Positions 8,032 to 27,128 of a stretch of 64,000 nt of DNA are shown here, piece after piece. Under the pieces are notes generated by a model. That model saw nothing but the letters and a program-made list of their open reading frames with translations, was not told where the DNA came from and ran no database searches. Each line of letters begins with the position of its first letter. The first letter of the stretch is position 1. Made by a program: the position numbers and the translations under genes. Source of the DNA: Kordia antarctica (lineage in GTDB: Bacteria; Bacteroidota; Bacteroidia; Flavobacteriales; Flavobacteriaceae); NCBI RefSeq assembly GCF_009901525.1, contig NZ_CP019288.1:682001-746000 (forward strand). Reading direction: 5' to 3'.

Positions 8032-8078
8032 GGTAAAAAAAACATTTATAATTAAAAATTCCTCATTAAATTTCCAAA

Positions 8079-8120: not shown

Positions 8121-8203
8121 ATGTTATGTTATTCTAAATGTTCTAGAAAACTTTTCACTTTTCACTTTTCACTTTAAAATTTCACATTCAACATTTATAA
8201 TTT

Positions 8204-9157
8204 CTAATTAGTATGTTCAATAGTTCGATACGCTTCAATCACTTTTTTCACAAGTCTGTGACGCACAACATCTTTATCGTCTAAATAAATAATTCCAATT
8301 CCTTTGACGTCTTTTAGTACTAATAACGCTTCTTTCAAGCCAGAAGTGACGCGTCTTGGTAAATCAATTTGTCCAGGATCGCCTGTCAACATAAATTTTG
8401 CATTTTTTCCCATACGTGTCAAAAACATCTTCATTTGCGCATGTGTTGTATTTTGAGCTTCATCCAAAATTACAAACGCATTATCCAACGTACGACCACG
8501 CATAAACGCCATTGGCGCAATCTGAATAGTTCCGTTTTCTATATAATTGGTTAATCTTTCTGGCGGAATCATATCGCGCAAAGCGTCATACAAAGGTTGC
8601 ATATACGGATCTAACTTTTCTTTTAAATCGCCTGGCAAGAAACCTAAACTTTCGCCAGCTTCTACTGCTGGACGTGTTAAAATAATTCGCCTAACTTCTT
8701 TATTTTTCAATGCTCTAACAGCCAAAGCAACTCCTGTATACGTTTTTCCCGTTCCTGCTGGACCAATGGCAAAAACCATATCATTTTTCCCCATCATTTC
8801 CACCAACTTTCGTTGATTTGCCGTAATTGCTTTTACTAATCTTCCATTGGTTCCGTGCAACAAAACTTCTCCACTTTCGTTGGAAGTATCATAATCTTTG
8901 GAACTTTCGCTAGTTAACACACGTTCAATGACATTTTCGTCAATTTTGTTGTACTTGCTAAAATGTTCCATTAGCATGTTCAATCGTTTGTCAAATTCTT
9001 CTAATAAGACTTCATCTCCGTAGGCTTTTATCTTGTTTCCTCTTGCTACAATTTTGAGTTTTGGGAAGTATTTTTTTAGCGATTCTATGTTGGTATTTTG
9101 TTGACCAAAAAACTCTCTTGGACTGATCTCAGAAAGTTCAAAAATAATTTCGTTCAA
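8204..9157 (-). CDS. phoH: PhoH-family ATPase (YbeZ type)
   Basis: 317 aa. N-terminal KH-like region (about 1-100), then the PhoH ATPase domain with Walker A IGPAGTGKTYT and Walker B/DEAQ motif VILDEAQNTTHAQMKMFLTRMG. This is the usual layout and length of PhoH/YbeZ proteins, which bind nucleotides and RNA and act in rRNA processing and stress, often with YbeY. Cytoplasmic. It is divergent from the SAM hydrolase gene with a 106-bp shared promoter region. Family assignment is secure; the detailed role is from general knowledge. Confidence 0.95.
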   Translation of the reverse strand: MNEIIFELSEISPREFFGQQNTNIESLKKYFPKLKIVARGNKIKAYGDEVLLEEFDKRLNMLMEHFSKYNKIDENVIERVLTSESSKDYDTSNESGEVLLHGTNGRLVKAITANQRKLVEMMGKNDMVFAIGPAGTGKTYTGVALAVRALKNKEVRRIILTRPAVEAGESLGFLPGDLKEKLDPYMQPLYDALRDMIPPERLTNYIENGTIQIAPMAFMRGRTLDNAFVILDEAQNTTHAQMKMFLTRMGKNAKFMLTGDPGQIDLPRRVTSGLKEALLVLKDVKGIGIIYLDDKDVVRHRLVKKVIEAYRTIEHTN

Positions 9158-9197
9158 AAGCGACTGGTATTAAGGTTATATTTCCGTTTTGTTTTTT

Positions 9198-9218
9198 TAG
9201 ATTTGCATAGCAAAGTTA
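9198..9218. promoter_or_regulatory. Divergent promoter boxes for phoH and SAM hydrolase
   Basis: Plus strand TAGATTTG (9198-9205) and minus strand TAACTTTG (complement of 9211-9218) both fit the TAnnTTTG -7 consensus. They would start transcripts about 50 bases before each gene. No clear -33 partner for either. Confidence 0.4.
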
Positions 9219-9263
9219 CCATTTTTTATAGATTAAATTTAAAGAAATATCAACAATTCGCCA

Positions 9264-10094
9264 ATGGCAATTATAACTTTAACAACTGATTTTGGGGAGA
9301 AAGACCATTTTGTGGGCGCAGTTAAAGGAGCTATTTATAGTGAACTTGATGATATTCGCATTGTTGATATCTCACACAGCGTAGATCCTTTTAATATTAC
9401 GGAAGCGGCGTATATTATACAAAATGCGTTTAATAGTTTCCCGAAAGGCAGCATTCATCTTATCGGAATCGATTCTGAGTTAAACCCTGAAAATAAGCAT
9501 ATTGCAGTAAAATTGGACGGTCATTTTTTCGTCTGTGCTAATAATGGAATCATGAGTTTGATTGCTTCTGAGATTCTTCCTGAAAAGATTGTAGAAATAA
9601 ATATTCACGACAGAATCGAGACAAATTTCCCAGTTTTAGACGTTTTTGTGAAAGTTGCGTGTCACATTGCGCGCGGCGGAACCTTAGAAGTTATCGGGAA
9701 AACAATTCAAGAAATAAAATATTTAACAGGCATTAAACCTGTCATAAATAATGACGAATCGCAAATTATTGGAAACGTGATTTATATTGATAATTATGGA
9801 AACGTTGTTACCAACATCACGCGAAAAATAGTAAAAGACGTCGGAAAAGGGCGTGATTTCGAGATTTCGGCGCGTACTTACAAATTCAAAACGATTCACG
9901 AACGTTACAGCGATGCTATCAATTTTACAGTAGAACGTCACAAACGTGAAGAAGATGGCAAAAAATTAGCGTTGTTTAATTCTGCAAATTTTTTAGAATT
10001 GGCCATTTACAAAAGCAATCCGCATACAGTTGGTAGCGCTTCTAGCCTATTTGGATTGCGATTTAGAGATACGATAACTATTAATTTTTTATAA
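9264..10094 (+). CDS. S-adenosyl-L-methionine hydrolase (adenosine-forming), DUF62 family
   Basis: 276 aa. The N-terminus carries the family hallmark: LTTDFGEKDHFVGAVKG, followed by VDISHSV and AAYIIQNAFNSFPKGSIHL. The family (Pfam S-adenosyl-L-methionine hydroxide adenosyltransferase) includes fluorinase and chlorinase, but most members hydrolyse SAM to adenosine and methionine, the likely role here. The C-terminal beta domain is complete (GNVIYIDNYGNVVTNI). Cytoplasmic. The next gene starts 4 bases after its stop, so the two form an operon. Start ATG at 9264 gives the typical MAIITLTTDFG beginning. Confidence 0.93.
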   Translation: MAIITLTTDFGEKDHFVGAVKGAIYSELDDIRIVDISHSVDPFNITEAAYIIQNAFNSFPKGSIHLIGIDSELNPENKHIAVKLDGHFFVCANNGIMSLIASEILPEKIVEINIHDRIETNFPVLDVFVKVACHIARGGTLEVIGKTIQEIKYLTGIKPVINNDESQIIGNVIYIDNYGNVVTNITRKIVKDVGKGRDFEISARTYKFKTIHERYSDAINFTVERHKREEDGKKLALFNSANFLELAIYKSNPHTVGSASSLFGLRFRDTITINFL

Positions 10095-10098
10095 AATT

Positions 10099-10398
10099 AT
10101 GTTTATACGAATTGTAAAAATGAGTTTTCACTCGGAACACATTCCTGAATTTTTGGCAATGTTTGATGAAAAGAAAGAATCGATCAAAAATCGGGAAGGT
10201 TGTGAGTTTTTAGAGTTGTATCAAGATAAAACAAATCCTGAAATATTCTTTACATACAGTCATTGGAAACATGTCGATAACTTAGAAGCATATCGCAATT
10301 CAGACTTATTCAAAAACGTTTGGAAACAAACAAAAGCCATGTTTAACGACAAACCTTTTGCTTGGAGCGTTGATAAATTAGTGAGTTTATCGAGTTAA
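10099..10398 (+). CDS. Antibiotic biosynthesis monooxygenase (ABM) domain protein
   Basis: 99 aa, a one-domain ferredoxin-like dimeric ABM fold. It shows IRIVKMSFHSEHIPEFLAMF at the start, EGCEFLELYQDK in the middle and FFTYSHWKHVDNLEAYRNSD toward the end, matching the family pattern (substrate or quinol oxidation without cofactor, or a stress-related heme/quinol role). The usual length is about 95-100 aa. It is co-transcribed with the SAM hydrolase gene (4-bp gap). The substrate is unknown. Confidence 0.88.
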   Translation: MFIRIVKMSFHSEHIPEFLAMFDEKKESIKNREGCEFLELYQDKTNPEIFFTYSHWKHVDNLEAYRNSDLFKNVWKQTKAMFNDKPFAWSVDKLVSLSS

Positions 10399-10452
10399 TA
10401 TCAATTTTATAGTAATCCGTTGTGCATTTCAAATTCAAAAATATGATAGTAA

Positions 10453-10572
10453 CGTCAGTTCGAGTGATTTTGAGGCACGAAAAATCGTATCGAGAACCTG
10501 TTTAGTGTAAAAAATTCTATTCTCGATACAAATTTTACTCATTTTCAATCGTAAAATTCACTCGAATTGACG
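10453..10572. repeat. Dispersed palindromic intergenic element, full copy
   Basis: Two inverted arms: CGTCAGTTCGAGTGATTTT ... GTATCGAGAA on the left and the reverse complement of CGTCAATTCGAGTGAATTTT ... TGTATCGAGAA on the right. About 120 bp; could fold into a long imperfect hairpin. Confidence 0.8.
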
Positions 10573-10685
10573 AATTTTATCAAAAAGCACAACGGTTTAT
10601 ATTATAATTGCAATACAAATACTAGAATCCATTCCGCATCGTTAGTGAACTGTGCGCAACAACAATTGTTACTAAAAAGAAATCA

Positions 10686-11411
10686 ATGCTAGCCATACTT
10701 CGAAAAGAAATCAATTCCTTTTTTTCCTCATCTATAGGATATTTGGTGATTGCCTTATTTTTAATTCTCAACGGATTATTCTTATGGTTTTTTAAGAGTG
10801 AATTCAACATTCTCGATTACGGATTTGCAGATTTAACACCATTTTTTACCTTAGCACCTTGGATTTTTATCTTTTTGATTCCTGCCATTACGATGCGAAG
10901 CTTTTCAGAAGAAAAACGTTTAGGAACACTTGAATTACTATTAACAAAACCAATTTCAGGTTGGGAAATTGTACTTGGAAAGTATTTTGGCGCGTTTGTT
11001 TTAATTCTTATTGCGTTGATTCCGACGTTATTATACGTTTTTACCGTGTACAGTTTAGGAAATCCTGTTGGAAACTTAGATGTCGGAAGTACGCTTGGCT
11101 CCTATTTTGGATTGTTATTCCTAATTGCTGCCTACACAAGTATTGGCGTATTTACATCGACGCTTTCGCAGAATCAGATTGTGGCGTTTATTGCGGCAGT
11201 TTTTATCTGTTTTGTACTATATTTTGGGTTTGAAGGAATTGCGAATGCGGCCGTTTTTGGCGATTTTAATCTTACGATAGAAAAACTAGGCATGAAACGT
11301 CATTTTGATAGTATTGCACGCGGCGTAATTGACACACGAGACGTAATTTACTTTTTAAGTGTAACCATATTCTTTTTATTTCTAACCGTAATTCAATTAA
11401 AAAAACGATAA
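10686..11411 (+). CDS. gldF: Gliding-motility ABC transporter permease GldF
   Basis: 241 aa with six hydrophobic segments (ABC-2 type permease). The N-terminus MLAILRKEINSFFSSSIGYLV, given here in part, and the loop RSFSEEKRLGTLELLLTKP(I/L) are typical of GldF. With GldA (ATPase, not in the window) and GldG it forms the ABC complex required for gliding in Flavobacterium johnsoniae. The stop is 2 bases before the gldG start, a conserved gldFG arrangement. Inner membrane. Confidence 0.95.
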   Translation: MLAILRKEINSFFSSSIGYLVIALFLILNGLFLWFFKSEFNILDYGFADLTPFFTLAPWIFIFLIPAITMRSFSEEKRLGTLELLLTKPISGWEIVLGKYFGAFVLILIALIPTLLYVFTVYSLGNPVGNLDVGSTLGSYFGLLFLIAAYTSIGVFTSTLSQNQIVAFIAAVFICFVLYFGFEGIANAAVFGDFNLTIEKLGMKRHFDSIARGVIDTRDVIYFLSVTIFFLFLTVIQLKKR

Positions 11412-11413
11412 GC

Positions 11414-13090
11414 TTGAAAAAAGAAACTCATACTAAAAAAGAAATCCACGTTAGTGTTAAGATACTTTTAGTCCTTATCGGATTAATCATTCTGAATGTA
11501 ATTGCAGGAAGCGTATTTACACGTTTCGATCTCACACAAGATAAACGGTATACTTTATCAGAAGCTTCAAAAGAAACGATTTCAAATGTAAATTCTCCTA
11601 TTACAATTGATGTTTTTCTGAAAGGCGATTTTCCTTCCGATTATAAACGTTTGGCAACTGAAACCGAACAATTATTGGCAGAATTTTCAGCATATAATTC
11701 AAATGTGAACTACAATTTTGTAGATCCAATCAAAGAAAATGCAGAATCTTTTTTGAATGAAAACGGAATGCCTCCAACTTTTATTACAGAAGAAGCAACC
11801 AATAAAATTTCGCGCGAAAGCGTGTATCCGTGGGCAATTGCCAATTATGGAACTAAAACTGTCAAAATTCAGCTGTATAAAAACAATCTTGCAAGTTCTT
11901 CATCTGAAAAAATTGCAAGTTCTGTGCAACATTTAGAATATGCGTTTGCAGATGCATTTACAAAATTAACCTTATTAGAAAAACAAACTATCGCAATTTT
12001 GAGAGGAAATGGCGAATTGGAAGATGTGTATATTGCTAGTTTTTTACAAACACTAAAAGATTACTACAAAATTGCTCCTTTTGATTTAAGTGCGTTTCCC
12101 GACAATCCTGAAAAGTCGTTGGAAAACTTAAATCGTTTCGATTTGATGATTGTTCCAAAACCAACAGAAGCATTTTCAGACGAAGAAAAATATGTATTAG
12201 ATCAATATACTATGAATGGCGGAAAATCCTTGTGGTTGGTAGAAACTGTACAAGCCGAAATGGACAGTTTGTATAGCGAAAATGGCGCATCACTTGCATT
12301 TCCAAGAGATTTACGCTTGAACGATTTCTTCTTTTCATACGGTTTACGAATCAACCCGAAACTGGTAAACGATGTGCAATGCGCACCAATTATGATGGCA
12401 GTTGGCGAAGGAAATGATACTCAATTTTTACCAATTCAATGGCGTTATAATCCGTTAGTAAAACCAGCTTTAAAACATCCAATTACAAATAATACGAATT
12501 TGGTAAAGTTTGAATTTGCCAATCAGATTGATACGTTAAAGAATAATCTTAAGAAGACAATTCTACTGAAAAGTTCGGCAGCATCAAAACTAGAAGGCGT
12601 TCCAAAACCAATTTCTTTGTCAGTCATTGAAAACGAACCAACACTAGAAACCTACGAAGGAAAAGGCAATCAAAATTTGGCGGTTTTAGTTGAAGGAACA
12701 TTTACATCGATGTATAAAAATAGAGTCAAACCATTTCAACTTTCAATGGATAAATTACAAGGCGAATCTAAAATGTTAGTGATTGCAGATGGCGATGTTA
12801 TCAAAAATCAAGTTACACGCGGAAGACCGCAAGATTTAGGCTTTGATATTGCGACAAAACGTGAATATGGAAACAAAGAATTCCTATTAAATTCGGTAAA
12901 TTACCTTTTAGACAATAATGGACTTATAAACATTCGATCTAAAGAATTAAAATTAGCATTTTTAGATACTGAGAAAGTACTAGAAGAAAAATCGTACTGG
13001 CAACTACTAAACATTGGACTTCCGCTTGTAATACTCGCAATTTTTGGCTTTGTATTTACCTATATTCGAAAGCGTAAATTTGCGAAATAG
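11414..13090 (+). CDS. gldG: Gliding-motility ABC transporter accessory protein GldG
   Basis: 558 aa. An N-terminal membrane anchor (ILLVLIGLIILNVIAGSVF) follows a short basic tail, then the motif RFDLTQDKRYTLSEASKE, the periplasmic ABC-2 auxiliary domain, and a C-terminal membrane segment (LLNIGLPLVILAIFGFVFTY) with a basic end. This matches GldG in length and layout. The start is TTG at 11414: no ATG is available before the first membrane segment, and the 2-base distance from gldF supports this start. It works with GldF in the gliding machinery. Confidence 0.94.
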   Translation: MKKETHTKKEIHVSVKILLVLIGLIILNVIAGSVFTRFDLTQDKRYTLSEASKETISNVNSPITIDVFLKGDFPSDYKRLATETEQLLAEFSAYNSNVNYNFVDPIKENAESFLNENGMPPTFITEEATNKISRESVYPWAIANYGTKTVKIQLYKNNLASSSSEKIASSVQHLEYAFADAFTKLTLLEKQTIAILRGNGELEDVYIASFLQTLKDYYKIAPFDLSAFPDNPEKSLENLNRFDLMIVPKPTEAFSDEEKYVLDQYTMNGGKSLWLVETVQAEMDSLYSENGASLAFPRDLRLNDFFFSYGLRINPKLVNDVQCAPIMMAVGEGNDTQFLPIQWRYNPLVKPALKHPITNNTNLVKFEFANQIDTLKNNLKKTILLKSSAASKLEGVPKPISLSVIENEPTLETYEGKGNQNLAVLVEGTFTSMYKNRVKPFQLSMDKLQGESKMLVIADGDVIKNQVTRGRPQDLGFDIATKREYGNKEFLLNSVNYLLDNNGLINIRSKELKLAFLDTEKVLEEKSYWQLLNIGLPLVILAIFGFVFTYIRKRKFAK

Positions 13091-13129
13091 TTGTTAATAA
13101 GTTTCCTTTCTTTACAACTACAATTGAGA

Positions 13130-13137
13130 TATATTTG
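13130..13137 (+). promoter_or_regulatory. -7 promoter box (TATATTTG) before dnaN
   Basis: Exact TAnnTTTG match about 105 bases before the dnaN ATG, leaving a 5' UTR of roughly 100 bases. -33 element not clear. Confidence 0.45.
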
Positions 13138-13242
13138 TAAGAATATTGAAATGTGATTCTTCAGGCATAAATTTACAGCCAAAAAAGCTATGTAATTTAG
13201 TTCGAATGAATTATTTTTGAACATTAAACAGAACACAAACAC

Positions 13243-14361
13243 ATGAAATTTATTGTATCAAGCACATATTTATTAAAGCAGCTTCAAGTTTTAGGAGGCG
13301 TAATTAATAATAGTAATACCTTACCTATTTTAGATAATTTTCTTTTTGAACTGAACCAAAATGAATTAACGGTTTCTGCTTCAGATTTGGAAACGACAAT
13401 GTCTTCAAAATTAGATGTAGAATCTGAAAGTGAAGGAAATGTTGCAGTTCCTGCGAAATTATTATTAGATACTTTAAAAACGTTTCCAGAGCAACCATTA
13501 ACGTTTGTTGTGGAAGATAATAATACAATTGAAATTAGTTCTAATCACGGTAAATACGCGTTGGCATATGCTGATGGCGCTGAGTTTCCAAATGCAGTTG
13601 AGTTAAAAGACCCAAGTTCAACAACAATAGCTGGACATGTACTAGCAACTGCAATTAGCAAAACAATTTTTGCTTCTGGAAATGATGATTTACGACCTGT
13701 AATGAGTGGCGTATTTTTCCAGTTTTCTCAAGAAAATTTAACGTTTGTTGCAACAGATGCTCACAAATTAGTGAAATATCAGCGTACAGATTTAAAAGCT
13801 TCACAAGTTGCGGAATTTATTATGCCAAAGAAACCTTTAACACTGTTAAAAGGAATTTTAGCCGGAAGCGAAGACGACGTTGTGATCGAATATAATGACA
13901 GTAATGCAAAATTTACGTTTGATAAAACTGTTTTAATTTGTCGTTTGATTGATGGAAAGTATCCAAACTACGAAGCGGTAATTCCAAAAGAGAATCCAAA
14001 TAAGTTAGAAATCAACAGAAATCAATTTTTAAATTCTGTGCGTCGTGTTAGTATTTTCTCTAACAAAACAACACACCAAATTCGTTTAAAAATTGCTGGC
14101 GCTGAATTAAATATTTCTGCGGAAGATATTGATTATTCAAACAAAGCAGAAGAACGTTTAACATGTGATTATCAAGGTGATGACATGCAAATAGGCTTCA
14201 ACTCACGTTTCCTAACAGAAATGATTAACAACTTAACTTCGGATGAAGTTTCGTTAGAAATGTCGTTACCAAACAGAGCTGGAATTTTAACACCAATTGA
14301 TGGTTTAGAAGAAGGCGAACACATTACAATGCTCGTTATGCCTGTGATGTTGAATAATTAA
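13243..14361 (+). CDS. dnaN: DNA polymerase III beta subunit (sliding clamp)
   Basis: 372 aa, three clamp domains. Recognisable blocks: N-terminal MKFIVSSTYLLKQLQVLGGVI, NTLPILDNFLFEL, the middle ATDAHKLVKYQRTD, and the C-terminal end HITMLVMPVML, which matches the conserved 'MPM/L' tail of the clamp. It forms the ring-shaped dimer that tethers the replicative polymerase. Length is normal (about 370). It is single-standing with its own terminator; dnaA is not adjacent, as is common in Bacteroidetes. Confidence 0.97.
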   Translation: MKFIVSSTYLLKQLQVLGGVINNSNTLPILDNFLFELNQNELTVSASDLETTMSSKLDVESESEGNVAVPAKLLLDTLKTFPEQPLTFVVEDNNTIEISSNHGKYALAYADGAEFPNAVELKDPSSTTIAGHVLATAISKTIFASGNDDLRPVMSGVFFQFSQENLTFVATDAHKLVKYQRTDLKASQVAEFIMPKKPLTLLKGILAGSEDDVVIEYNDSNAKFTFDKTVLICRLIDGKYPNYEAVIPKENPNKLEINRNQFLNSVRRVSIFSNKTTHQIRLKIAGAELNISAEDIDYSNKAEERLTCDYQGDDMQIGFNSRFLTEMINNLTSDEVSLEMSLPNRAGILTPIDGLEEGEHITMLVMPVMLNN

Positions 14362-16996: not shown

Positions 16997-17929
16997 TTAC
17001 CATCTTTCCATTGTTCGGTAACTAATCGCTGTTTCTGTTTCGCCTTTTCGTAATGAACCGTATTTTTCACTGATATATTGTTTGTAAAACAACTTAAAAT
17101 CATTAAGGTTAGCTTTCCAATTTGAGTCTTCTGAAATTTGAAATTCTTTTATAAAATTATCGCTATGCTCAGGAAACTTATAAAATCGATCAAAATCTTT
17201 ACGTAAAAGATCTAAAATTTTCTCTTCGCTATTTCCTTGAAGTCTGTAATTATGCCAATTCACAGCTATTTTATCTAAGTCTCTAAAGTTCCCGTAGAAG
17301 CTATGACCTTGGTTTTCTAACCATTCTCTTAATTTTCCTTCTGGTAAATTATTTTCTTTCTCAAAACTCATTTTATTCCAAGTTTTTTTAAAGTCTTTCC
17401 AAATACTTCTATTGTAATCTTTATATGATGGCAATTCTACTGCAAATTGACAAATTCTATCAAAAAATTTATGTGCTAAATATACTTCACTGTCACGCAA
17501 ACTACTAACGCTTTTAGTTGATGTAAAAGCAATACGGATGTCGTATTCCTTTTTATCAAAACCAAATTTTCCTCCTTGACCACTGGAAATTCCTTTAAAT
17601 AATAAAGCTTGACTTTCTTTTGTGAGTTCTTCAACATCTGTAATGACCAATAATCCATGATTAACTTTTTCAAAGATCTTAATCCAATCATTTTCACCAT
17701 TTTTATTTGAATTTGCAGCACCAATGAAAACACTTTTCTGTAAATTCAAATCAGCTTCTTTTTTATAAAATTCTTGTAATTCCTTTAACCAATGCGCTTT
17801 TCCTGTACCACGTGAACCTAAAAATAGAATCGAAAATCTTCCTGGATTTGTTATAAATGAATTTAATTTCTGAACTGCTTCTCTTCTTTTTCCTATTTCT
17901 GTTTTAAATAAATCATTCATTTTGTCCAT
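16997..17929 (-). CDS. Orphan sigma-54-activator-like AAA+ ATPase
   Basis: 310 aa. Walker A is GSRGTGKAH (G38-K44), the GxxGTGK form of sigma-54 activators. A region like their Walker B follows (GLLVITDVEELTKESQALLFKGIS aligns with the 'GGTLFLDEIGEL...Q..LL..L' pattern, in parts), but the usual DE pair reads TD, so hydrolysis may be changed. FFDRICQFAVELPSYKDY matches the R(L/I).....LP.L..R block. The GAFTGA loop that contacts sigma-54 is absent, as are a receiver domain and a complete C-terminal HTH; the protein stops at SYRTMERW. It converges with mnmE (tail to tail, no gap). The partner is unknown. Confidence 0.6.
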   Translation of the reverse strand: MDKMNDLFKTEIGKRREAVQKLNSFITNPGRFSILFLGSRGTGKAHWLKELQEFYKKEADLNLQKSVFIGAANSNKNGENDWIKIFEKVNHGLLVITDVEELTKESQALLFKGISSGQGGKFGFDKKEYDIRIAFTSTKSVSSLRDSEVYLAHKFFDRICQFAVELPSYKDYNRSIWKDFKKTWNKMSFEKENNLPEGKLREWLENQGHSFYGNFRDLDKIAVNWHNYRLQGNSEEKILDLLRKDFDRFYKFPEHSDNFIKEFQISEDSNWKANLNDFKLFYKQYISEKYGSLRKGETETAISYRTMERW

Positions 17930-18022: not shown

Positions 18023-18307
18023 ATGAGAAAAAAGAAAATTAAAAAAACCGAACACTGCTTGTTACGTCAATGGGAAAGAAATATTCCTGATTCATTATTA
18101 AGCAAAGCAATGTCATCTATTAACTTAGATAAAGACAAAAAGGTAATAGTAACACCTTTGTTCTTCAAACGAAAAAATATTGAATTCACAAAGAATTCAT
18201 GTTTGATTCTAATTATAAAAGAGCAAAAACTAATAACTGTTTATCAGAAACTATTCAAAAATTGTTTGTTTAAAAGAGACAAGAATGATTATGAAATTTT
18301 AGTTTAA
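18023..18307 (+). CDS. Small basic protein of unknown function (DUF4258-like?)
   Basis: 94 aa, basic and Lys-rich. The segment EHCLLRQWERNIPDSLLSKAM resembles the 'H...R...R.I....I..A' start of DUF4258/toxin-like small proteins, and the rest has beta-type segments (KVIVTPLFF, CLILIIKEQKLITVY) as in RelE-like folds. No antitoxin gene is adjacent. It sits 57 bp before the GT4/radical-SAM gene on the same strand and could share its transcript. Function not established. Confidence 0.55.
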   Translation: MRKKKIKKTEHCLLRQWERNIPDSLLSKAMSSINLDKDKKVIVTPLFFKRKNIEFTKNSCLILIIKEQKLITVYQKLFKNCLFKRDKNDYEILV

Positions 18308-18364: not shown

Positions 18365-20668
18365 ATGCACATCTTAAAAATAATTCACGGCTATCCGCCA
18401 AACTATAATGCAGGTTCAGAAGTGTATAGTCAATCTATATGCAATGAATTGTCCAAAAATCATAGGGTTTCTGTTTTCACAAGAGATGAAAATCCTTATG
18501 CGCTTGATTTTGAGATTCGAAAAGAGAAAATCCATAGAAATTTAGACATTTATTTTGTAAATAATCCGCAAGGAAAAGACGGATATCGTCATGAAACGTT
18601 AGATCAAAATTTTGCAGAATTTATCAAAAATATTCAACCAGATATTGCACATATTGGACATCTAAATCATTTGTCAACAGGAATTATAGATGTATTGAAT
18701 GATTTCAGTATTCCAATTGTATTTACATTGCACGATTTTTGGTTAATGTGTCCAAGAGGTCAGTTTTTAACCAGAAGTATCGGAAAAGATTGCAACCATA
18801 ATTTGTGTGATAAGCAAGAAGATAAAAAATGTGCAACCGATTGTTATCAAGTATATTTCAGCGGGAAAAAAGAAGAAGAACAACAAGATATTGATAGTTG
18901 GAGTAATTGGGTTCATCGTAGAATGAAAGAAACAAAAGCAATTATACCAAAAATTGATCTATTTATTGCACCTTCAAACTATTTACTAGATCGATTTGTA
19001 CATGATTTTGAAATCCCAAAAGAGAAAATAACTTATCTAGATTATGGATTTCCCGCGAGTTATTTACATCCGACAGAAAATACAATACCTAAAGAAAACT
19101 TTACATTCGGTTATATTGGCACACATATTCCTGCTAAAGGCATCAATCAACTCATTGAAGCATTTAAATTGGTTGATAAATCGGCAACACTTAAAATTTT
19201 TGGGCGTGAAAAAGGACAAGCTACTAAAGCTTTGAAAATAATGGCTGCAACTAGTAAAAATAAAATTGAATTTTTGGGCGAATACATGAATGAAAATCTT
19301 GTAAAAGAAGTCTTTTCAAATGTAGATTGTATTGTGGTGCCTTCAATTTGGGGAGAAAATTCGCCATTGGTAATTCATGAAGCGCAAGCTTGTAAAATTC
19401 CTGTAATTACAGCTGATTTTGGCGGAATGAAAGAATATGTACAACATCATGTAAATGGACTATTATTTGAACATCGAAATGTGACTTCTTTGGCAGAACA
19501 ATTAAATTTCGCTGTGGCAAATCCTGAAAAAATGAAACAATATGGAAATAAAGGTTATTTGTATTCAGACGATGGAAAAGTTCCTGAAATTAAAACACAT
19601 TGTCAAGAATTGGTAAAGATTTATAATCATTATGGTATGACAAAAAATTTCTGGAGAATTACCATTGATACAAATCCTGAAGATTGCAATCTAAAATGTA
19701 TCATGTGCGAAGAACACAGTCCGTATAGTAATTTTATTGATACACTTTACAAAGAAACTGGCGTTAAAAGAAGGCGCATGGCTTTTGAGACTGTGCAAGA
19801 AATTTTTGCCCAAGCCGCTAAATTAGGCGTTACAGAAATCATTCCATCTACGATGGGCGAACCTTTATTATATAAGAAATTTGATCAAATTTTTGAGTTG
19901 GCAAAAGAATATAATATTAAAATCAACTTAACGACAAACGGAACGTTTCCGAAAAAAACAGTCTTAGATTGGGCAAAATTGATCGTTCCTAATACAAGTG
20001 ATGTGAAAATTAGTTGGAATGGCGCAACTGCTGAAACTTCAAAAGAAATCATGAAAGGAATCGATTTTGAGCAAGCGATTCAAAATGTTAAAGAATTTAT
20101 TACATATCGTGATCAGTATTTCAAAAAAACAGGCTATTTCTGTCGTGTAACATTTCAGTTGACATTTATGCAAAATAATATGCATGAGTTATCAGATATT
20201 ATAAAATTAGCCGCTTCACTTGGTGTCGATCGCGTAAAAGGTCATCAACTTTGGGATCATTTTGAAGAAATAAAACAGCTTTCTATGCGAGCATCTTCTG
20301 ATAGTATTTCGCAATGGAATTTGTATGTAGGACAAGCGCATACAACTGCTGGAAACTTTCGAAAACCTAATGGAGAAAAAGTATTACTAGAAAATATTGT
20401 TCCAATTTCCGAAGATGAAAAAATGGAAATGCCCGAAGATGCTGTCTGTCCTTTTTTAACAAAAGAATTATGGATTTCTGCCACAGGAAAAATTTCTCCA
20501 TGTTGCGCGCCAGACAATCTAAGACAATCGTTAGGTGATTTTGGAAATATAAATGCTACTTCCGTAGAAGAAGTATTAAAAAGTAAAAAATACCAAGATT
20601 TAGTCAAAAATTACAAATCCAAAGAAGTCTGTAAAACCTGCGTCATGCGAAAAACTATGGATTCATGA
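18365..20668 (+). CDS. GT4 glycosyltransferase / radical SAM-SPASM fusion
   Basis: 767 aa. Residues 1-430 form a GT-B fold of the GT4 type: GYPPNYNAGSEVYSQ at the donor-side start, GYIGTHIPAKGI, and the ENSPLVIHEAQACKIPVI (EX7E-like) nucleotide-sugar motif. From about 435 a radical SAM domain begins, with Cys441-X3-Cys445-X2-Cys448 for the [4Fe-4S]/SAM cluster. A SPASM-type C-terminal region follows (Cys713-Cys714 in ISPCCAPD, and CKTC at 756-759). The stop overlaps the next start by 4 bases. Inferred role: glycosyl transfer plus a radical modification of the same substrate class, soluble in the cytoplasm. The substrate is unknown. Confidence 0.88.
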   Translation: MHILKIIHGYPPNYNAGSEVYSQSICNELSKNHRVSVFTRDENPYALDFEIRKEKIHRNLDIYFVNNPQGKDGYRHETLDQNFAEFIKNIQPDIAHIGHLNHLSTGIIDVLNDFSIPIVFTLHDFWLMCPRGQFLTRSIGKDCNHNLCDKQEDKKCATDCYQVYFSGKKEEEQQDIDSWSNWVHRRMKETKAIIPKIDLFIAPSNYLLDRFVHDFEIPKEKITYLDYGFPASYLHPTENTIPKENFTFGYIGTHIPAKGINQLIEAFKLVDKSATLKIFGREKGQATKALKIMAATSKNKIEFLGEYMNENLVKEVFSNVDCIVVPSIWGENSPLVIHEAQACKIPVITADFGGMKEYVQHHVNGLLFEHRNVTSLAEQLNFAVANPEKMKQYGNKGYLYSDDGKVPEIKTHCQELVKIYNHYGMTKNFWRITIDTNPEDCNLKCIMCEEHSPYSNFIDTLYKETGVKRRRMAFETVQEIFAQAAKLGVTEIIPSTMGEPLLYKKFDQIFELAKEYNIKINLTTNGTFPKKTVLDWAKLIVPNTSDVKISWNGATAETSKEIMKGIDFEQAIQNVKEFITYRDQYFKKTGYFCRVTFQLTFMQNNMHELSDIIKLAASLGVDRVKGHQLWDHFEEIKQLSMRASSDSISQWNLYVGQAHTTAGNFRKPNGEKVLLENIVPISEDEKMEMPEDAVCPFLTKELWISATGKISPCCAPDNLRQSLGDFGNINATSVEEVLKSKKYQDLVKNYKSKEVCKTCVMRKTMDS

Positions 20669-21312
20669 AACATTCTACAATTACAAATTCAATCTGGAAT
20701 TTCAGAGATGCAAATACGCACAATCCAATTATTAAGGAAGGCTTTCTATTTAGAAGTTCTAGTTTTTCATTAATACCTAATAAAGAGTCCATTAATGACT
20801 TATTAAAAGAAAAAAACATAACTACAATCATTGATCTTCGCGCAGATAGAGAACTTTTAGCAAATCCATATTCTGGAACTATTTTAACAAATATTAAGTA
20901 CATTCATGCACCTTTTGATCCGTGGAATCAACCTGATTGGTTTCAAAAAAATCATCAAATTGGAACAAACGAAGAAATTGCATATCGCTTTTTCACAATG
21001 TGTTGCAAACGTTCTGTAAAACAAGTTGTTGAGACGATTCTTGAACAAAAATCTGGCAATATCGCCATTCATTGTCACGCAGGAAAAGACCGAACAGGAA
21101 TCATTTTTGCACTATTTCATTTGTTAATTAATTCGTCTTTGGAAAATATTTATGTAGATTATTTAGCAAGCGAAATGGACACTACTATGGACAAAATTGC
21201 TATTACGCTTGATATTATTGATGATGAAGGCGGAATTGAATCGTATTTGCATTCATGCGGATTGACAGAAAATAAACTTACAAAACTAAAACACAAGTTG
21301 CTAGATGAATAA
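20665..21312 (+). CDS. Tyrosine / dual-specificity phosphatase family protein
   Basis: 215 aa. The P-loop HCHAGKDRTG gives the CX5R active site (Cys137, Arg143), and the N-terminal part NFRDANTHNPIIKEGFLFRSS fits the bacterial 'Y_phosphatase3' type, with a Leu/Arg-Ala-Asp stretch (IDLRADREL) typical of the family. It starts inside the stop of the fusion gene (ATGA overlap) and its end overlaps the methyltransferase start by 8 bases, so it is translationally coupled on both sides. Substrate could be a phosphoprotein, phosphoinositide-like or sugar phosphate; inference only. Confidence 0.87.
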   Translation: MKHSTITNSIWNFRDANTHNPIIKEGFLFRSSSFSLIPNKESINDLLKEKNITTIIDLRADRELLANPYSGTILTNIKYIHAPFDPWNQPDWFQKNHQIGTNEEIAYRFFTMCCKRSVKQVVETILEQKSGNIAIHCHAGKDRTGIIFALFHLLINSSLENIYVDYLASEMDTTMDKIAITLDIIDDEGGIESYLHSCGLTENKLTKLKHKLLDE

Positions 21313-22270
21313 AAAAGATTCTTTAAAATCATTTTTTACGGAACATTGGAAATATTTGGCAGTAAGCACAGCTTGTAAACTGAATATTTTTGATGTTTTG
21401 GCTGAAAAAGGAAAAACCGCCATAGAAATTTCTCAATCGCTTTCTTTACACAAAAAAAATACAAAAATATTGCTAGATGCGTTGTATGAAATTGAGTTTC
21501 TCTCGCATGAAAATGATACATATATACTCACTGAAAATTCTATTTATTTGACTGAAAATCATTCTGAATCATTAAAATATGCGTGTATGCATTGGGCAAC
21601 CGAACATTTAACAACCTGGCAAAACCTAGATTTTTCAATTCGAACTAATAAAAGTGCTTTCGAAGATCAATTCGGAGCTTCTTATTTTGATTATTTGAAC
21701 CAAGATGTGCAAAAACTAACAGATTATCACAAAGCGATGAACGCATATGCAAGAGATGATTACAAAAAAATAAATCATGTAATTGATTTTAGTATTCACA
21801 AAAGTATTATGGATGTTGGCGGTAGTTATGGCGCGCTACTTCAAACAATTAAACAAAACAACATTAATGTAAAATGTTACTTATTTGACTTAGATTTAGT
21901 GATAGAAAGTCAAGAAAAACGAAATGATATCACGTATATAAAAGGTGATTTTTTTGAGAGAATTTCAACCTATTCAGAAGCAATTATTTTATCAAGAATT
22001 TTACACGATTGGAATGATGAAAAAGCAATTAAAATACTAAATAATACATTTAAATCCTTACCAGAAAACGGTTTTTTATATGTCATTGAAAATTGTTCCG
22101 ATAAATTAACGACAAATCTATCACTATTGTCTTTGAATATGTTGGCGGTTTGTGAAAGTTACGAACGTTCCTCTCTTGAATACATTTCATTAGCAAACAA
22201 AGCTGATTTTAAATTTCGTGAAGCAAAAAAACTAAATCAATTGCAAACCATTCTAATATTTACAAAATGA
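21305..22270 (+). CDS. SAM-dependent O-methyltransferase-like protein
   Basis: 321 aa with the two-part layout of the plant/fungal-type family 2 O-methyltransferases. An N-terminal winged-helix dimerisation domain (ACKLNIFDVLAEKGKTAIEIS) is followed by a Rossmann domain with motif I MDVGGSYGALLQ, the acidic LFDLDLV motif and SRILHDWNDEKAIKIL (the typical 'LHDW' His region). It acts on small molecules in the cytoplasm. It is joined to its neighbours by an 8-bp overlap upstream and a 4-bp overlap downstream. Substrate unknown; context suggests a modification pathway with the radical SAM protein. Confidence 0.86.
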   Translation: MNKKDSLKSFFTEHWKYLAVSTACKLNIFDVLAEKGKTAIEISQSLSLHKKNTKILLDALYEIEFLSHENDTYILTENSIYLTENHSESLKYACMHWATEHLTTWQNLDFSIRTNKSAFEDQFGASYFDYLNQDVQKLTDYHKAMNAYARDDYKKINHVIDFSIHKSIMDVGGSYGALLQTIKQNNINVKCYLFDLDLVIESQEKRNDITYIKGDFFERISTYSEAIILSRILHDWNDEKAIKILNNTFKSLPENGFLYVIENCSDKLTTNLSLLSLNMLAVCESYERSSLEYISLANKADFKFREAKKLNQLQTILIFTK

Positions 22271-22971
22271 TACATTGGAAAGATATTAAAGTTTCGACGG
22301 AAAATAATGGATTTATACATGAAGGAAAATCTTTATTCAACAAACAATTTGAAGAAGTCTTGAAATTTCATAGCCCAGGTTTAGCGCCTGTAAAAGATGT
22401 TTCTGGCTGGTATCATATTGGTGTAAAAGGAAATGCTTTGTACGACAATCGATATGAGAGAACTTTTGGCTATTATTTCAATAGAGCAAGCGTTATTAAA
22501 GGAGATTCTTCGTTCCATATTGATGAAAAAGGAAAGCGTATGTACGATGAAAATTATAATTGGACAGGAAACTTTCAAGAAAACTTATGTAGCGTTAGAA
22601 ATTCTAAAAATGAGTATTTTCATATTGATTTACGAGGAAAAAAAGTTTATAAAGAAACGTATAGATATGCAGGAGATTTTAAAGATGGGATTGCTTGCGT
22701 AAGATTGCAAGATGGATTTTATAAACACATTAGCATCAATGGAAATTTTATCAATGATATTGAATTTTTGGATTTAGGCGTATTTCATAAAAATTATGCA
22801 ACTGCAAAAGATGAAAATGGTTGGTTTCATATTAATAAGCAAGGAAAAGAATTATACGCACAGCGTTACCAACTAATTGAGCCTTTTTACAACGGTTTTG
22901 CAGTAGTTGATACTTTTCAACATACTAAAGAAATTATTAATGAAAAAGGAAAAATTATAGTTACATTATAA
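22267..22971 (+). CDS. WG-repeat protein
   Basis: 234 aa made of about five to six WG-type repeats: 'GWYHIGVKGNALYDNRYE', 'SSFHIDEKGKRMYDENYN', 'EYFHIDLRGKKVYKETYR', 'FYKHISINGNFI' and 'GWFHINKQGKELYAQRYQ'. Spacers carry F..G.A.V. The repeats form beta structures thought to bind partners or ligands. There is no signal peptide, so it is probably cytoplasmic. The start overlaps the methyltransferase stop (ATGA). It is the last gene of the coupled operon and converges with the next methyltransferase at 1 bp. Confidence 0.85.
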   Translation: MIHWKDIKVSTENNGFIHEGKSLFNKQFEEVLKFHSPGLAPVKDVSGWYHIGVKGNALYDNRYERTFGYYFNRASVIKGDSSFHIDEKGKRMYDENYNWTGNFQENLCSVRNSKNEYFHIDLRGKKVYKETYRYAGDFKDGIACVRLQDGFYKHISINGNFINDIEFLDLGVFHKNYATAKDENGWFHINKQGKELYAQRYQLIEPFYNGFAVVDTFQHTKEIINEKGKIIVTL

Positions 22972-23678: not shown

Positions 23679-26600
23679 TTATCGCTTTAACGTAATGTTT
23701 GTTATTAATTCTTGTTTTTGCGCATCCATCGTATATTGAATTGAAACCCAATAATCACCCGATGGCATTTTACGACCATTATAGGTTCCGTTCCACTGTG
23801 GATAATTAGGTGTTAATATGGTAATTATTTTTCCATATCGATCATAAATATATACAAAGTAATTGCAATTTTGTACTTGCTCCAATTGCCAAGTATCGTT
23901 GAAACCATCACTATTTGGCGTGAAAAATTTACGAATTCTAAAACATGGTTCTGTTTCTACTTCACATATCAATTCAATAAATGGAAACACAATTGTACAT
24001 CCAGAGCTATTCTCTTCAATAGTGATGTTCGTGTAAATTCCAACACTCAAATTGTTCATTTCTAAAATTCCTGATGCGTCAGAAGTAACAATTGTAGTTT
24101 CCATTGAACCATTCAAACTATACGAAATTGTATACGCAGTATTTGCGGTTGCGCCTTGAAACGAAATAATTCCGTCACTTACGCCACATGCGCTTGGATT
24201 TGTGGTTGTTGGTATTAATACCAAATCAGAATTCGTTAAAGTTAGATTTCCAATGTTGGCAATGCAATTTGTAATCGTGTCTTCTACTACTATAGATTCG
24301 TACATTCCTGCACCTAAATTGTTCATTTCTAAAATTCCTGATACGTCAGAAGTAACAATTGTAGTTTCCATTGAACCATTCAAACTATACGAAATTGTAT
24401 ACGCAGTATTTGCGGTTGCGCCTTGAAACGAAATAATTCCGTCACTTACGCCACATGCACTTGGATTTGTGGTTGTTGGTGTTAATACCAAATCAGAATT
24501 CGTTAAAGTTAGATTTCCAATGTTGGCAATGCAATTTGTAATCGTGTCTTCTACTACTATAGATTCGTACATTCCTGCACCTAAATTGTTCATTTCTAAA
24601 ATTCCTGATGCGTCAGAAGTAACAATTGTAGTTTCCATTGAACCATTCAAACTATACGAAATTGTATACGCAGTATTTGCGGTTGCGCCTTGAAACGAAA
24701 TAATTCCATCACTTACGCCACATGCACTTGGATTTGTGGTTGTTGGTGTTAATACCAAATCAGAATTCGTTAAAGTTAGATTTCCAATGTTGGCAATGCA
24801 ATTTGTAATCGTGTCTTCTACGATTATTGATTCATAGATTCCAGTTCCCAAATTGTTCATTTCTAAAATTCCTGATGCGTCAGAAGTAACAATTGTAGTT
24901 TCCATTGAACCATTCAAACTATACGAAATTGTATACGCAGTATTTGCGGTTGCGCCTTGAAACGAAATAATTCCATCACTTACGCCACATGCACTTGGAT
25001 TTGTGGTTGTTGGTGTTAGAATAAGTGCTAAATTATCTATAATTAGTTCTCCAATGCCAGATGCACACGGATTAAGTGAATCTGTAACCATGATTATTTC
25101 ATAAATTCCTGCGCTTAATCCTGTGAGTAGTATTTCACCATCTGCGCTGGCATTATAAGTATTTACAACTTGATTTGATTCATTGAAATAATCAACCACA
25201 TAGTTTTGATTTGGTGCCAAACCAGCAATTAAAATAGAACCATCGGGCGTATTACAAGACGAAGTTGCAGTAGTGGTAAATATTAAATTAATCGTTGGTT
25301 GATCTAATAATATATCTCCAAGAATATCTTCACAATTCGAATTGACATCTAGTACTGTAAATGATACATACGTACCTCCAAAAATATTTGACAGCACAAT
25401 TTCTCCAGTTGCAGTAGAAGTTAACGTTATTGTTTCTGGATTTGTATTAAATTCATAACTTATTTGATACGTTGTATTTGACGCTAAATTACTTAATGAA
25501 ATGCTTCCATCTGGATTGCCACATATCGTTGGACTCTGTGTCGTGAAATTTACATCCAAACTGTCTGAGTTTAAAGTAGCATCTCCTAAATTATCAAAAC
25601 AAAGACCAACTGTATTGTTTACCGTAATATTCGTATAATTTCCTCCTGAAAGACCTGATATTGATAATTCTCCATTACCATCTGAAGAAATGTTAGTTGT
25701 AATTACATTAGATTCAAATTCATAGGTAATTTCATAAATTGTATTCGAATTTAAGTCAGCTATTACAATTTCTCCATCAGTAGCTGTACAATCCGTTGGG
25801 TTTTGAGTTGCAGCAATGACATATGAAATTTCGCCTAATTCCAATATCCAAACGGCTCCTTTATCATTTCCGTTTTCACTATCTTTATAAGCTCCTACTG
25901 CAAAACGATACGTTCCTGCATCATTCAAGATAGTTACAGATCCACCAAAAAAATCACCCGAATTTAGTGTTCCTGTAAAGCAATTTTCTCCATAAGTATA
26001 TATATATTCTTCAGATACAGTTCCATCATTATTCAATTCAATAAGATAGATAGCTCCTGTTTGACTTGAAAGCGTTGGGTTTTGTTGTCGCAAAGCACCG
26101 ACAACAATTTCTATTTTACCATCATTATCAATATCAATTACACCGTCAATAGATTCTCCAAAAAGCGCATTATTACTAATTGTCCCATTAAATCCTCCCG
26201 AAAGGTTAGATACTTTTTGATGATTTTTCACAGTTCCATCAGGATTCAAAAATAATACATAAAAACTTCCAGAGTTTGAAATTTGGTCATCATCCCTATA
26301 TGCACCAACAACAATATCAGTTGTTCCATCTTCATCCAAATCGCCAACACTTGCAACCGATCCTCCAAAATAATCTTCAAACTCTAATATTCCCGTAAAA
26401 TTCCCTTGTGTATCGCTAATTTTCTGAAAATTATTTACTGTAAAGTTAGCATTCATAAATAAAATCCAAACGGCACCTCTACGTGCACCGCCATCACCAT
26501 CTCTACGTGAACCAACTGCTAAATCTTCAATTCCGTCATTATTTATATCGCCAATATTTTCAATATCAGTTCCAAAAATTACATCTCCATTAAAAAACCC

Positions 26601-27128
26601 AGTAAAACCACCTTGTGTATCACTAATTTTTGAATGAGAATTTACTGTTCCGTCAGGATTCAAACTTAAAATCCAAACTGCTCCATGCCAAAATCCGCCA
26701 TCTCCATCATAATCAGCTCCAACTGCCAATTCTATTAAACCATCGTTATTTAAATCTCCTAAATAAGCAACAGCTCCACCAAATCGGTCATCATTATCTA
26801 AAATTCCAGTAAAATTTCCGCTCGTATCACTAATTTTAGTGTGAGAAATTACAAGATTATCTGCATCCAAAAACAAAATCCAAACAGCACCTCTATCGGT
26901 ACCTCCATCATCGTCAGTATATGCTCCAACGGCTAAATCATTAACACCATTTCCATCAAGATCTCCTATGGCATCAATTGAAATGGCAAAATTATCACTT
27001 ACATCAAGATTACCCGCGAAATTCCCTGTTAGTTCATTGATTTTTTGAGAACTAGAAACGGAGTAATTCTGAGAAAAACAACAACAACTATAGAGAATTG
27101 TAGCAATAAGAAAACAAGCTTTTTGCAT
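23679..27128 (-). CDS. Secreted FG-GAP / repeat adhesin-like protein, T9SS type B
   Basis: 1149 aa. Signal peptide at 1-20. Residues about 30-435 hold six FG-GAP blades ('GDLNNDGLIELAVGA' type), most with the Asp-rich calcium motif. Residues about 439-1060 hold seven SprB-like beta repeats of about 89 aa, each starting near '(T/F)T..P..C...DG'. The last four are almost identical. The C-terminus is the CHU_C/type B sorting domain (FFTPNSDGFNDTWQLE, IYDRYGKII, GTYNGRKMPSGDYWVSI) that directs export and surface attachment by T9SS. It looks like a surface adhesin. It is flanked by methyltransferase genes, with no close operon partner. Confidence 0.93.
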   Translation of the reverse strand: MQKACFLIATILYSCCCFSQNYSVSSSQKINELTGNFAGNLDVSDNFAISIDAIGDLDGNGVNDLAVGAYTDDDGGTDRGAVWILFLDADNLVISHTKISDTSGNFTGILDNDDRFGGAVAYLGDLNNDGLIELAVGADYDGDGGFWHGAVWILSLNPDGTVNSHSKISDTQGGFTGFFNGDVIFGTDIENIGDINNDGIEDLAVGSRRDGDGGARRGAVWILFMNANFTVNNFQKISDTQGNFTGILEFEDYFGGSVASVGDLDEDGTTDIVVGAYRDDDQISNSGSFYVLFLNPDGTVKNHQKVSNLSGGFNGTISNNALFGESIDGVIDIDNDGKIEIVVGALRQQNPTLSSQTGAIYLIELNNDGTVSEEYIYTYGENCFTGTLNSGDFFGGSVTILNDAGTYRFAVGAYKDSENGNDKGAVWILELGEISYVIAATQNPTDCTATDGEIVIADLNSNTIYEITYEFESNVITTNISSDGNGELSISGLSGGNYTNITVNNTVGLCFDNLGDATLNSDSLDVNFTTQSPTICGNPDGSISLSNLASNTTYQISYEFNTNPETITLTSTATGEIVLSNIFGGTYVSFTVLDVNSNCEDILGDILLDQPTINLIFTTTATSSCNTPDGSILIAGLAPNQNYVVDYFNESNQVVNTYNASADGEILLTGLSAGIYEIIMVTDSLNPCASGIGELIIDNLALILTPTTTNPSACGVSDGIISFQGATANTAYTISYSLNGSMETTIVTSDASGILEMNNLGTGIYESIIVEDTITNCIANIGNLTLTNSDLVLTPTTTNPSACGVSDGIISFQGATANTAYTISYSLNGSMETTIVTSDASGILEMNNLGAGMYESIVVEDTITNCIANIGNLTLTNSDLVLTPTTTNPSACGVSDGIISFQGATANTAYTISYSLNGSMETTIVTSDVSGILEMNNLGAGMYESIVVEDTITNCIANIGNLTLTNSDLVLIPTTTNPSACGVSDGIISFQGATANTAYTISYSLNGSMETTIVTSDASGILEMNNLSVGIYTNITIEENSSGCTIVFPFIELICEVETEPCFRIRKFFTPNSDGFNDTWQLEQVQNCNYFVYIYDRYGKIITILTPNYPQWNGTYNGRKMPSGDYWVSIQYTMDAQKQELITNITLKR
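24030..25020. repeat. Four tandem 267-bp near-identical repeats
   Basis: The anchor ATTGTTCATTTCTAAAATTC recurs at 24051, 24318, 24585 and 24852, a strict 267-bp (89 codon) period. Differences are few (for example ACGTCA against GCGTCA), so the copies are recent or homogenised by gene conversion. The array lies inside the 1149-aa T9SS gene. Confidence 0.95.

What the first reader, a model, noticed from the sequence alone, without database searches (positions are those of the whole stretch)
18365..22971. Four-gene translationally coupled operon: GT4-rSAM, tyrosine phosphatase, O-methyltransferase, WG-repeat protein
Stops and starts overlap by 4, 8 and 4 bases. This tight coupling implies a joint task: build and modify a small molecule or glycan, remove a phosphate, methylate, and bind or scaffold it (WG repeats). 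A sixth gene, the 94-aa basic protein, is 57 bp upstream and might be a peptide-like substrate or regulator. No known pathway matches this set to my knowledge. It is the best candidate here for an undescribed system.
Basis: partly seen in the sequence, partly recalled or inferred. Interest (0 to 1): 0.78.

Follow-up and report, generated by a model that had tools for sequence, protein, structure and literature searches.

The report
Mobile sugar-and-radical chemistry gene cassette
A tightly packed group of bacterial genes that probably builds an unknown sugar-containing small molecule belongs to a mobile cassette, sometimes found with phage-defence genes, whose core also lies in the unexplained "Undecim Cluster" of the Wolbachia phage WO.

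Summary
In detail: four genes overlap by 4, 8 and 4 bases and encode GT4-radical SAM/SPASM, DSP-type phosphatase, O-methyltransferase and WG-repeat protein. They are one version of a conserved, horizontally moving cassette. Of 80 loci examined (window plus 79 relatives), 63 had enough downstream sequence: 63 carry WG and 59 a phosphatase, from either of two unrelated families that changed 13 times on a quick tree. The methyltransferase is optional (28 of 63); a carbamoyltransferase can take its place.

Upstream, many loci carry a divergent RtcR-like CARF-sigma54 activator and a ~99-aa protein. Activators with a GAFTGA-like loop sit beside operons with a sigma54-like TGGCAY element. The window keeps a degenerate activator and has no such element.

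Known anti-phage genes adjoin some loci (viperin 3, McrBC 4, CBASS 1), and viperin is enriched in carrier genomes. One copy lies in a prophage.

The core (GT4-rSAM; WG fused to O-methyltransferase) is homologous to UC3-UC4 of phage WO's Undecim Cluster, whose function is unknown.

Best reading: an often inducible cytoplasmic pathway making a glycosylated small molecule for biological conflict. Conservation is shown; product and role are inferred.

The parts
16997..17929 (-). Divergent sigma54-type AAA protein (310 aa), degenerate: no CARF domain, no GAFTGA-like loop, Walker A ends GKA
18023..18307 (+). 94-aa conserved small protein (family c6), first gene of the operon in many relatives; no convincing Pfam match
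18365..20668 (+). GT4 glycosyltransferase (about residues 1-420) fused to radical SAM/SPASM (about 429-763); CxxxCxxC and EX7E motifs conserved (motif names recalled)
20665..21312 (+). DSP/Y_phosphatase3-type phosphatase, HCxAGKDRTG and DPW motifs present
21305..22270 (+). Methyltransf_2-type O-methyltransferase (optional member of the cassette)
22267..22971 (+). WG-repeat protein, 234 aa; high-confidence all-beta model (mean pLDDT 96) with about six repeated hairpins, counted by eye

Best explanation
The operon is one version of a mobile, cytoplasmic biosynthetic cassette. GT4 transfers a sugar to an unknown acceptor. The fused radical SAM/SPASM domain modifies the same intermediate. A phosphatase (DSP or, elsewhere, histidine phosphatase; often with a LinB-like nucleotidyltransferase) removes a phosphate. 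An O-methyltransferase or carbamoyltransferase caps a hydroxyl. The WG protein binds or presents the intermediate to the tailoring enzyme, to which it is fused in some bacteria. In many relatives a divergent RtcR-like CARF-sigma54 activator senses a nucleotide-like danger signal and turns the operon on. The product most likely serves biological conflict: intracellular anti-phage defence in free-living bacteria, recruited to a symbiosis role in the Undecim Cluster. Shown by sequence: gene content, conservation, interchangeable modules, domain motifs, the activator and its promoter element, mobile context, some defence neighbours, homology to UC3-UC4. Inferred: reaction order, substrate, inducer and biological role.
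For: Conserved core: WG 63/63, phosphatase 59/63. DSP and HisP almost exclusive (27 and 33, both in 1; Fisher 1.9e-12), with 13 changes by parsimony on a quick GT-rSAM tree (63 of 70 rows labelled). OMT 28 and CarbT 9, both in 1 (Fisher 0.036). Fusions: NTase-DSP, WG-OMT. Sugar chemistry: epimerase-type domain just before GT-rSAM in L046, L047, L049, L056, in the same ORF in L046; UDP-glucose dehydrogenase in L049. NTase nearest lincosamide nucleotidyltransferase, E 1.4e-7. Regulator: PADLOC RtcR CARF_AAA_HTH match E 1.5e-74; loop and TGGCAY element go together, raw 24/25 against 2/12 (Fisher 1.9e-6). Mobility: prophage copy L096, integrases and resolvases beside some loci, patchy presence. 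Defence: pVip in L055 and L075 and L024; CBASS genes beside WG-OMT in L059; McrBC in L005, L006, L007, L019 (by agreement of coordinates). pVip in 4 of 13 Flavobacteriaceae carriers, own genome included, against 7 of 396 other family genomes; in the genus pVip and the cassette are in the same 2 of 11 genomes, on different contigs or far apart.
Against: No biochemical or phage-challenge data. Seven of seven other pVip-positive family genomes lack the cassette, so viperin does not need it; and 39 of 49 carrier genomes searched lack pVip. McrBC is also commoner in carriers (16/50 against 12/118), so carriers may simply be defence-rich. No Pfam family was found in more than 3 of 130 sampled flanking proteins, so defence genes are not a constant neighbour. 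The window's own regulator is degenerate and no sigma54-like element was found. Homologues in Wolbachia phage WO and Arsenophonus plasmids suggest a host-associated role, and one paper says the Undecim genes are constitutively highly expressed (passages).
Confidence: 0.42

Rival explanations
1. Same biosynthetic logic, but the product is an ordinary secondary metabolite or host-interaction factor (as proposed for the Undecim Cluster), not anti-phage. The defence neighbours reflect shared mobile islands.
For: Core homologous to Undecim UC3-UC4; Arsenophonus plasmids carry it beside panBCE; McrBC enrichment shows carriers are defence-rich in general.
Against: Among the recurrent clusters outside the core that I identified (integrases, recombinases, McrBC) there is no transporter, but several small clusters (c14-c23) were not identified. 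RtcR-like CARF regulators and neighbouring viperin point to intracellular conflict.
Confidence: 0.27
2. The WG protein is the substrate: GT4 and rSAM glycosylate and radically modify its repeats, the phosphatase and O-methyltransferase finish it, and the modified protein is the effector.
For: WG is present in 63/63 loci, is 230-234 aa long in 63 of 73 sequences, and has strictly conserved His, Tyr and Trp positions. SPASM enzymes often act on peptides (recalled).
Against: WG is fused to the O-methyltransferase in L048, L059, Arsenophonus and phage WO, which suits a scaffold better. The model is a compact, confident fold. Carbamoyltransferase and LinB-like NTase act on small molecules in known relatives (recalled).
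Confidence: 0.15
3. RNA damage response: the cassette repairs or caps cleaved RNA ends (nucleotidyltransferase, phosphatase, methyltransferase) under an RtcR-like activator.
For: RtcR-like CARF-AAA regulator; NTase-phosphatase fusion; RtcR controls an RNA repair operon (PMC7790460, start of abstract in a listing).
Against: No ligase or cyclase in the window operon; relatives were not searched for them. GT4, carbamoyltransferase and LinB-like NTase are small-molecule enzymes. RtcR-like regulators unlinked to Rtc are known, often beside R-M systems (PMC4012209, passages).
Confidence: 0.08
4. Surface glycan (EPS/LPS) modification genes.
For: GT4 plus nucleotide-sugar enzymes in some relatives; the Undecim authors proposed EPS/LPS.
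Against: No flippase or polymerase gene noticed beside the window operon (read by eye). The core proteins look cytoplasmic by eye; no signal-peptide search was run. Conserved phosphatase and WG are not EPS hallmarks (recalled).
Confidence: 0.08

Closest known systems
Undecim Cluster of Wolbachia phage WO (WD0611-WD0621; PMC9203015)
   Same: UC3 is the same GT4-radical SAM fusion (48.7% over 781 columns). The next protein is a WG-OMT fusion (WG part 45% over 209 residues; the rest by similarity to the Arsenophonus and Pyxidicoccus fusions). An epimerase gene lies just upstream.
   Different: The window cassette has separate WG and OMT genes, a phosphatase, an AAA gene and a small protein. No epimerase, PhyH-like, aldolase or transporter genes of the Undecim kind were noticed beside it (by eye). 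It lies in a 5.5-Mb Bacteroidota genome, not in an intracellular symbiont's phage.
RtcR / RtcR-like CARF-AAA-HTH sigma54 activators
   Same: Relatives of the window operon have a divergent activator with CARF-like N-terminus, GAFTGA-like loop and C-terminal helices.
   Different: The operon they face is not rtcAB. The window copy is truncated and degenerate.
Prokaryotic viperins (pVip)
   Same: A radical SAM enzyme; genuine pVip genes sit in or beside 3 cassettes and occur elsewhere in other carrier genomes.
   Different: The rSAM domain of P0001 is not a viperin: only E 1e-10 to pVip against 1e-84 to 1e-87 for real ones, and it has SPASM and GT4 parts.
TIGR04157-type GT with radical SAM peptide-maturase clusters of Bacteroidota
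   Same: Glycosyltransferase working beside a radical SAM enzyme (family name; cluster context recalled).
   Different: Score 48.7 against a cut-off of 400; no precursor peptide recognised.

Membership tests
Undecim Cluster core | GT4-radical SAM fusion protein | tested here: met
   48.7% identity over full length to the phage WO protein
Undecim Cluster core | WG and O-methyltransferase partners next to it | tested here: met
   WO 531-aa protein matches WG (E 1.2e-61) and WG-OMT fusions; separate genes in the window
Undecim Cluster core | full eleven-gene set with epimerase, aldolases and transporters | tested here: not met
   not seen beside the window operon (by eye) against the WO map
Prokaryotic viperin | full-length strong match to pVip models | tested here: not met
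   P0001 E 9.7e-11 over residues 439-630 only
RtcR-like sigma54 activator (window gene 16997-17929) | CARF domain, Walker A Ser/Thr, GAFTGA loop | tested here: not met
   310 aa, no N-terminal domain, GKA, no loop; L009 and others meet it
RtcR-like sigma54 activator (relatives, c7) | CARF-AAA-HTH architecture | tested here: met
   PADLOC RtcR_PspF1 CARF_AAA_HTH E 1.5e-74 (one member); Rossmann-like N-terminus in the model. The 50 Foldseek rows shown were sigma54 AAA proteins, so CARF rests on sequence
RiPP system with rSAM/SPASM maturase | short precursor peptide | tested here: inconclusive
   the 94-aa protein is a family conserved along its length and was not detected in 36 of 58 loci with enough upstream sequence; other short ORFs were not examined
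RiPP system with rSAM/SPASM maturase | RiPP recognition element | not tested
   no RRE search was run
Known anti-phage system (PADLOC 2.0.0) | core proteins match defence models | tested here: not met
   no match at E 0.01 for P0002-P0005; P0001 only weak pVip
Anti-phage defence system | protects cells from phage | not testable with these tools
   needs phage challenge

The most novel reading that the evidence does not exclude
This is an undescribed anti-phage 'chemical defence' family. A CARF-sigma54 sensor of infection switches on a GT4-rSAM-phosphatase-WG pathway that makes an antiviral glycosylated (perhaps nucleotide-like) metabolite, working alongside prokaryotic viperin. The Undecim Cluster of Wolbachia phage WO descends from it.
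Probability: 0.33. Interest if true: 0.9.

Novelty: new variant of a known kind. Interest (0 to 1): 0.72.

Why it matters
The functions of the Undecim genes are called 'currently unknown' in a 2025 paper (PMC12801941, passages). Tracing their core to a cassette in many non-symbiotic bacteria, with defined regulators, interchangeable phosphatases and tailoring enzymes, and viperin, McrBC and CBASS neighbours at some loci, makes the question testable outside an intracellular symbiont. If the product is antiviral, it would be a new case of small-molecule phage defence.

Tried and rejected
Rejected: the 94-aa protein as a RiPP precursor, as unlikely (conserved along its length, not detected in 36 of 58 loci). 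A DUF4258/RelE-like identity for it was my own guess from memory; Pfam gave no support. Two small-protein families (c6, c9) compared: 43% probability, E 0.00024, left open. Rejected: P0001 as a viperin. EPS and RNA-repair readings kept as weak rivals.

Results that cut against my reading: pVip was in 0 of 295 other genomes of a Bacteroidota sample, but in 7 of 396 in the family, so the first contrast overstates the enrichment; none of those 7 has the cassette. The 295 include one carrier (G350) without pVip; the 396 were not all screened for the cassette. Carriers are also richer in McrBC. The 50 carrier loci for one search were chosen by me from 69, not at random. Flank scan: 130 of 368 eligible flanking proteins (430 before high-GC loci were dropped), no matched control set; McrBC 3 of 130, type I restriction and methylase subunits 2 of 130 each (both lists capped at 25 families).

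Led nowhere: in the listings shown (some capped), literature searches for WG-repeat or GT4-rSAM systems held no description of the cassette. Burroughs and Aravind 2016 and a 2020 CARF survey (title recalled) are not held, so prior mention there cannot be excluded. PDB relatives of WG by sequence: none at E 1. Fold comparison of the WG model never ran.

From the tree (70 of 80 loci): L057, L060, L083 and seven partial loci. L045 and L052 are from one genome, and L029 and L030 have identical GT-rSAM, so loci are not fully independent. The locus search kept the best 80 of 94 relatives. raw counts are reported. Reading the rows by hand: L051's loop match is false (it lies in another stretch), L043's site is inside the small gene, and L063 has a site but no loop match; the counts were not re-run. 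L006 and L071 hold both OMT and CarbT, or both phosphatases, respectively.
Full report
What is there. The window holds four same-strand genes that overlap by 4, 8 and 4 bases: GT4-radical SAM/SPASM (18365-20668), DSP-type phosphatase (20665-21312), Methyltransf_2 O-methyltransferase (21305-22270) and a WG-repeat protein (22267-22971). Domains were confirmed with Pfam. A 94-aa conserved protein lies 57 bases upstream, and a divergent 310-aa sigma54-type AAA protein lies beyond it (16997-17929, -). The genome is one 5.5-Mb contig.

Conservation. The GT4-rSAM protein is rare: 2 of 149 genomes of the family (each from a different genus), 2 of 11 of the genus and 2 of 395 in the phylum sample, own genome included each time. 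A scan of one genome per species gave 94 relatives, of which the best 80 were kept. Most titles are Bacteroidota; others read Acidocella, proteobacterium, Deltaproteobacteria, Myxococcales, Pyxidicoccus, Planctomycetota, Spirochaetaceae and Uabimicrobium. After removing one copy and adding the window, 80 loci were examined. In the 63 with at least 4 kb downstream, WG is present in 63, a phosphatase in 59, O-methyltransferase in 28, carbamoyltransferase in 9 and nucleotidyltransferase in 19. GT4 and rSAM are fused in 43, split into two genes in 16 and undecided (partial) in 4. These counts are conditional on relatives close enough to be found with P0001.

Interchangeable parts. DSP-type and histidine phosphatases are unrelated families. 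They occur in 27 and 33 of the 63 loci and together in 1. On a quick tree of 70 GT-rSAM sequences (33 of 66 inner branches starred, 19 open) the phosphatase type changes 13 times and the tailoring state 19 times by parsimony. Catalytic motifs of both phosphatase families are conserved. This suggests that removing a phosphate, not a particular protein, is what the pathway needs. The nucleotidyltransferase part is closest to lincosamide nucleotidyltransferase among solved structures (E 1.4e-7). In L046, L047, L049 and L056 an epimerase-type sequence lies just before GT-rSAM, in L046 within the same ORF, and L049 has a UDP-glucose dehydrogenase gene. WG is fused to the O-methyltransferase in L048 and L059 and in Arsenophonus and phage WO. 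The simplest reading is a glycosylated small molecule that is radically modified, dephosphorylated and capped, with WG serving the tailoring step.

Regulation. Of 58 loci with at least 3 kb upstream, 35 have a sigma54-type AAA gene, 17 loci with a CARF-like N-terminus; 22 have the small protein, each time with the AAA gene. One long form (L009) matches the RtcR CARF_AAA_HTH model (E 1.5e-74). Its model has a Rossmann-like N-terminus, although the 50 Foldseek rows shown were sigma54 AAA proteins. In 37 loci with a divergent AAA gene, a GAFTGA-like loop and a TGGCAY element upstream of the operon go together: raw counts 24 both, 1 loop only, 2 site only, 10 neither (Fisher 1.9e-6). Reading the rows by hand, the loop-only case (L051) is a false loop match and one site-only case (L043) lies inside the small gene. 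A full two-part sigma54 consensus is clear in few loci. The window copy has no CARF, no loop and Walker A ending in GKA, and no element was found, so sigma54 control appears lost there. Makarova et al. 2014 (PMC4012209, passages) note RtcR-like proteins not linked to Rtc and often beside restriction-modification systems.

Mobility and defence. A viral-collection contig (L096, apparently the same locus as L064) has the cassette between a GH108 endolysin gene and a phage integrase gene. Integrase or serine-recombinase clusters of five members each lie beside other loci. Prokaryotic viperin genes lie in or beside the operon in L055 and L075 (PADLOC E 1e-84 and 1e-87) and L024. L059 has a CD-NTase and a patatin effector gene directly downstream. 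McrBC genes fall inside L005, L006, L007 and L019 by agreement of coordinates; in L006 the gene ends 40 bases before GT4-rSAM. This is not a full census.

Viperin co-occurrence. Of 49 carrier genomes searched (50 loci that I picked from 69, one not held), 10 have pVip, plus the window's own genome: 11 of 50. In three the gene is linked to the cassette. Controls: 0 of 295 other genomes in a phylum sample and 7 of 396 others in the family. By locus titles, 4 of 13 Flavobacteriaceae carriers have pVip, own genome included (p 1.8e-4), 3 of 13 counting unlinked only (p 0.0027). In the genus, pVip and the cassette occur in the same 2 of 11 genomes, unlinked (Fisher 0.018). Against this: none of the 7 other pVip genomes of the family has the cassette, and McrBC is also enriched in carriers (16 of 50 against 12 of 118). 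The association holds in these samples but may partly reflect defence-rich genomes. The tests do not correct for shared ancestry or genome size.

Link to the Undecim Cluster. PHROGs has a full-length match (phrog_21308, E 9e-193). The phage records found are two Wolbachia phage WO entries. In MN180251 the GT-rSAM protein is 48.7% identical to P0001, and the next protein matches WG (45% over 209 residues) and the WG-OMT fusions. By gene order this is the Undecim Cluster (PMC9203015; passages and section 16 read). Its authors describe UC3 as a GT-radical SAM fusion and list UC4 under methylation, and propose EPS/LPS, antibiotic or cytotoxin-related roles; in what I read there is no mention of WG or of a free-living cassette. 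A 2025 paper calls the functions unknown (PMC12801941, passages). Arsenophonus plasmids from louse flies carry a similar set beside panBCE.

Verdict. The cassette and its modular logic are well supported. The product, and whether it acts against phages or on hosts, are inferred. In the listings shown I found no description of the wider cassette in the held papers, but two relevant papers are not held. I therefore call it a new variant of a known but unexplained kind.

Noticed in passing
L096 (IMGVR_UViG_2917530833), 1-13930: The cassette lies inside an apparent prophage between the endolysin and integrase genes, a usual place for accessory cargo.
   Followed up: partly
L097, L098 (Arsenophonus plasmids CP132902.1, CP132908.1): About 20-kb plasmids of louse-fly symbionts carry GT-rSAM and WG-OMT sequences beside panBCE; the GT-rSAM stretch has no protein record.
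   Followed up: partly
L085 8730-10215 (own genome, 5.04 Mb): A cytidylate kinase-like gene followed by a prokaryotic viperin gene, in one of only two of the 11 genus genomes that have viperin.
   Followed up: partly
L008 10295-11056, L020, L012 10296-10985, L052, L053, L061: An extra sequence with DxD-like motifs (by eye) follows GT-rSAM at the same place in six loci (two families that do not match each other; no Pfam match for the two scanned); possibly a second glycosyltransferase. In L053 and L061 it matches in several pieces.
   Followed up: partly
L054 1439-5674: An AbiE toxin-antitoxin pair and an IS66 transposase lie between rSAM and the phosphatase.
   Followed up: no
window 46854-49208 (-): By eye, one ORF looks like an MFS transporter fused to a glycoside-hydrolase-like domain resembling the two genes beside it, in what looks like a polysaccharide-use locus at about 44-64 kb. 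No family search was run.
   Followed up: no
window 23679-27128 (-): FG-GAP protein with a type IX secretion tail and four nearly identical internal repeats (by eye).
   Followed up: no
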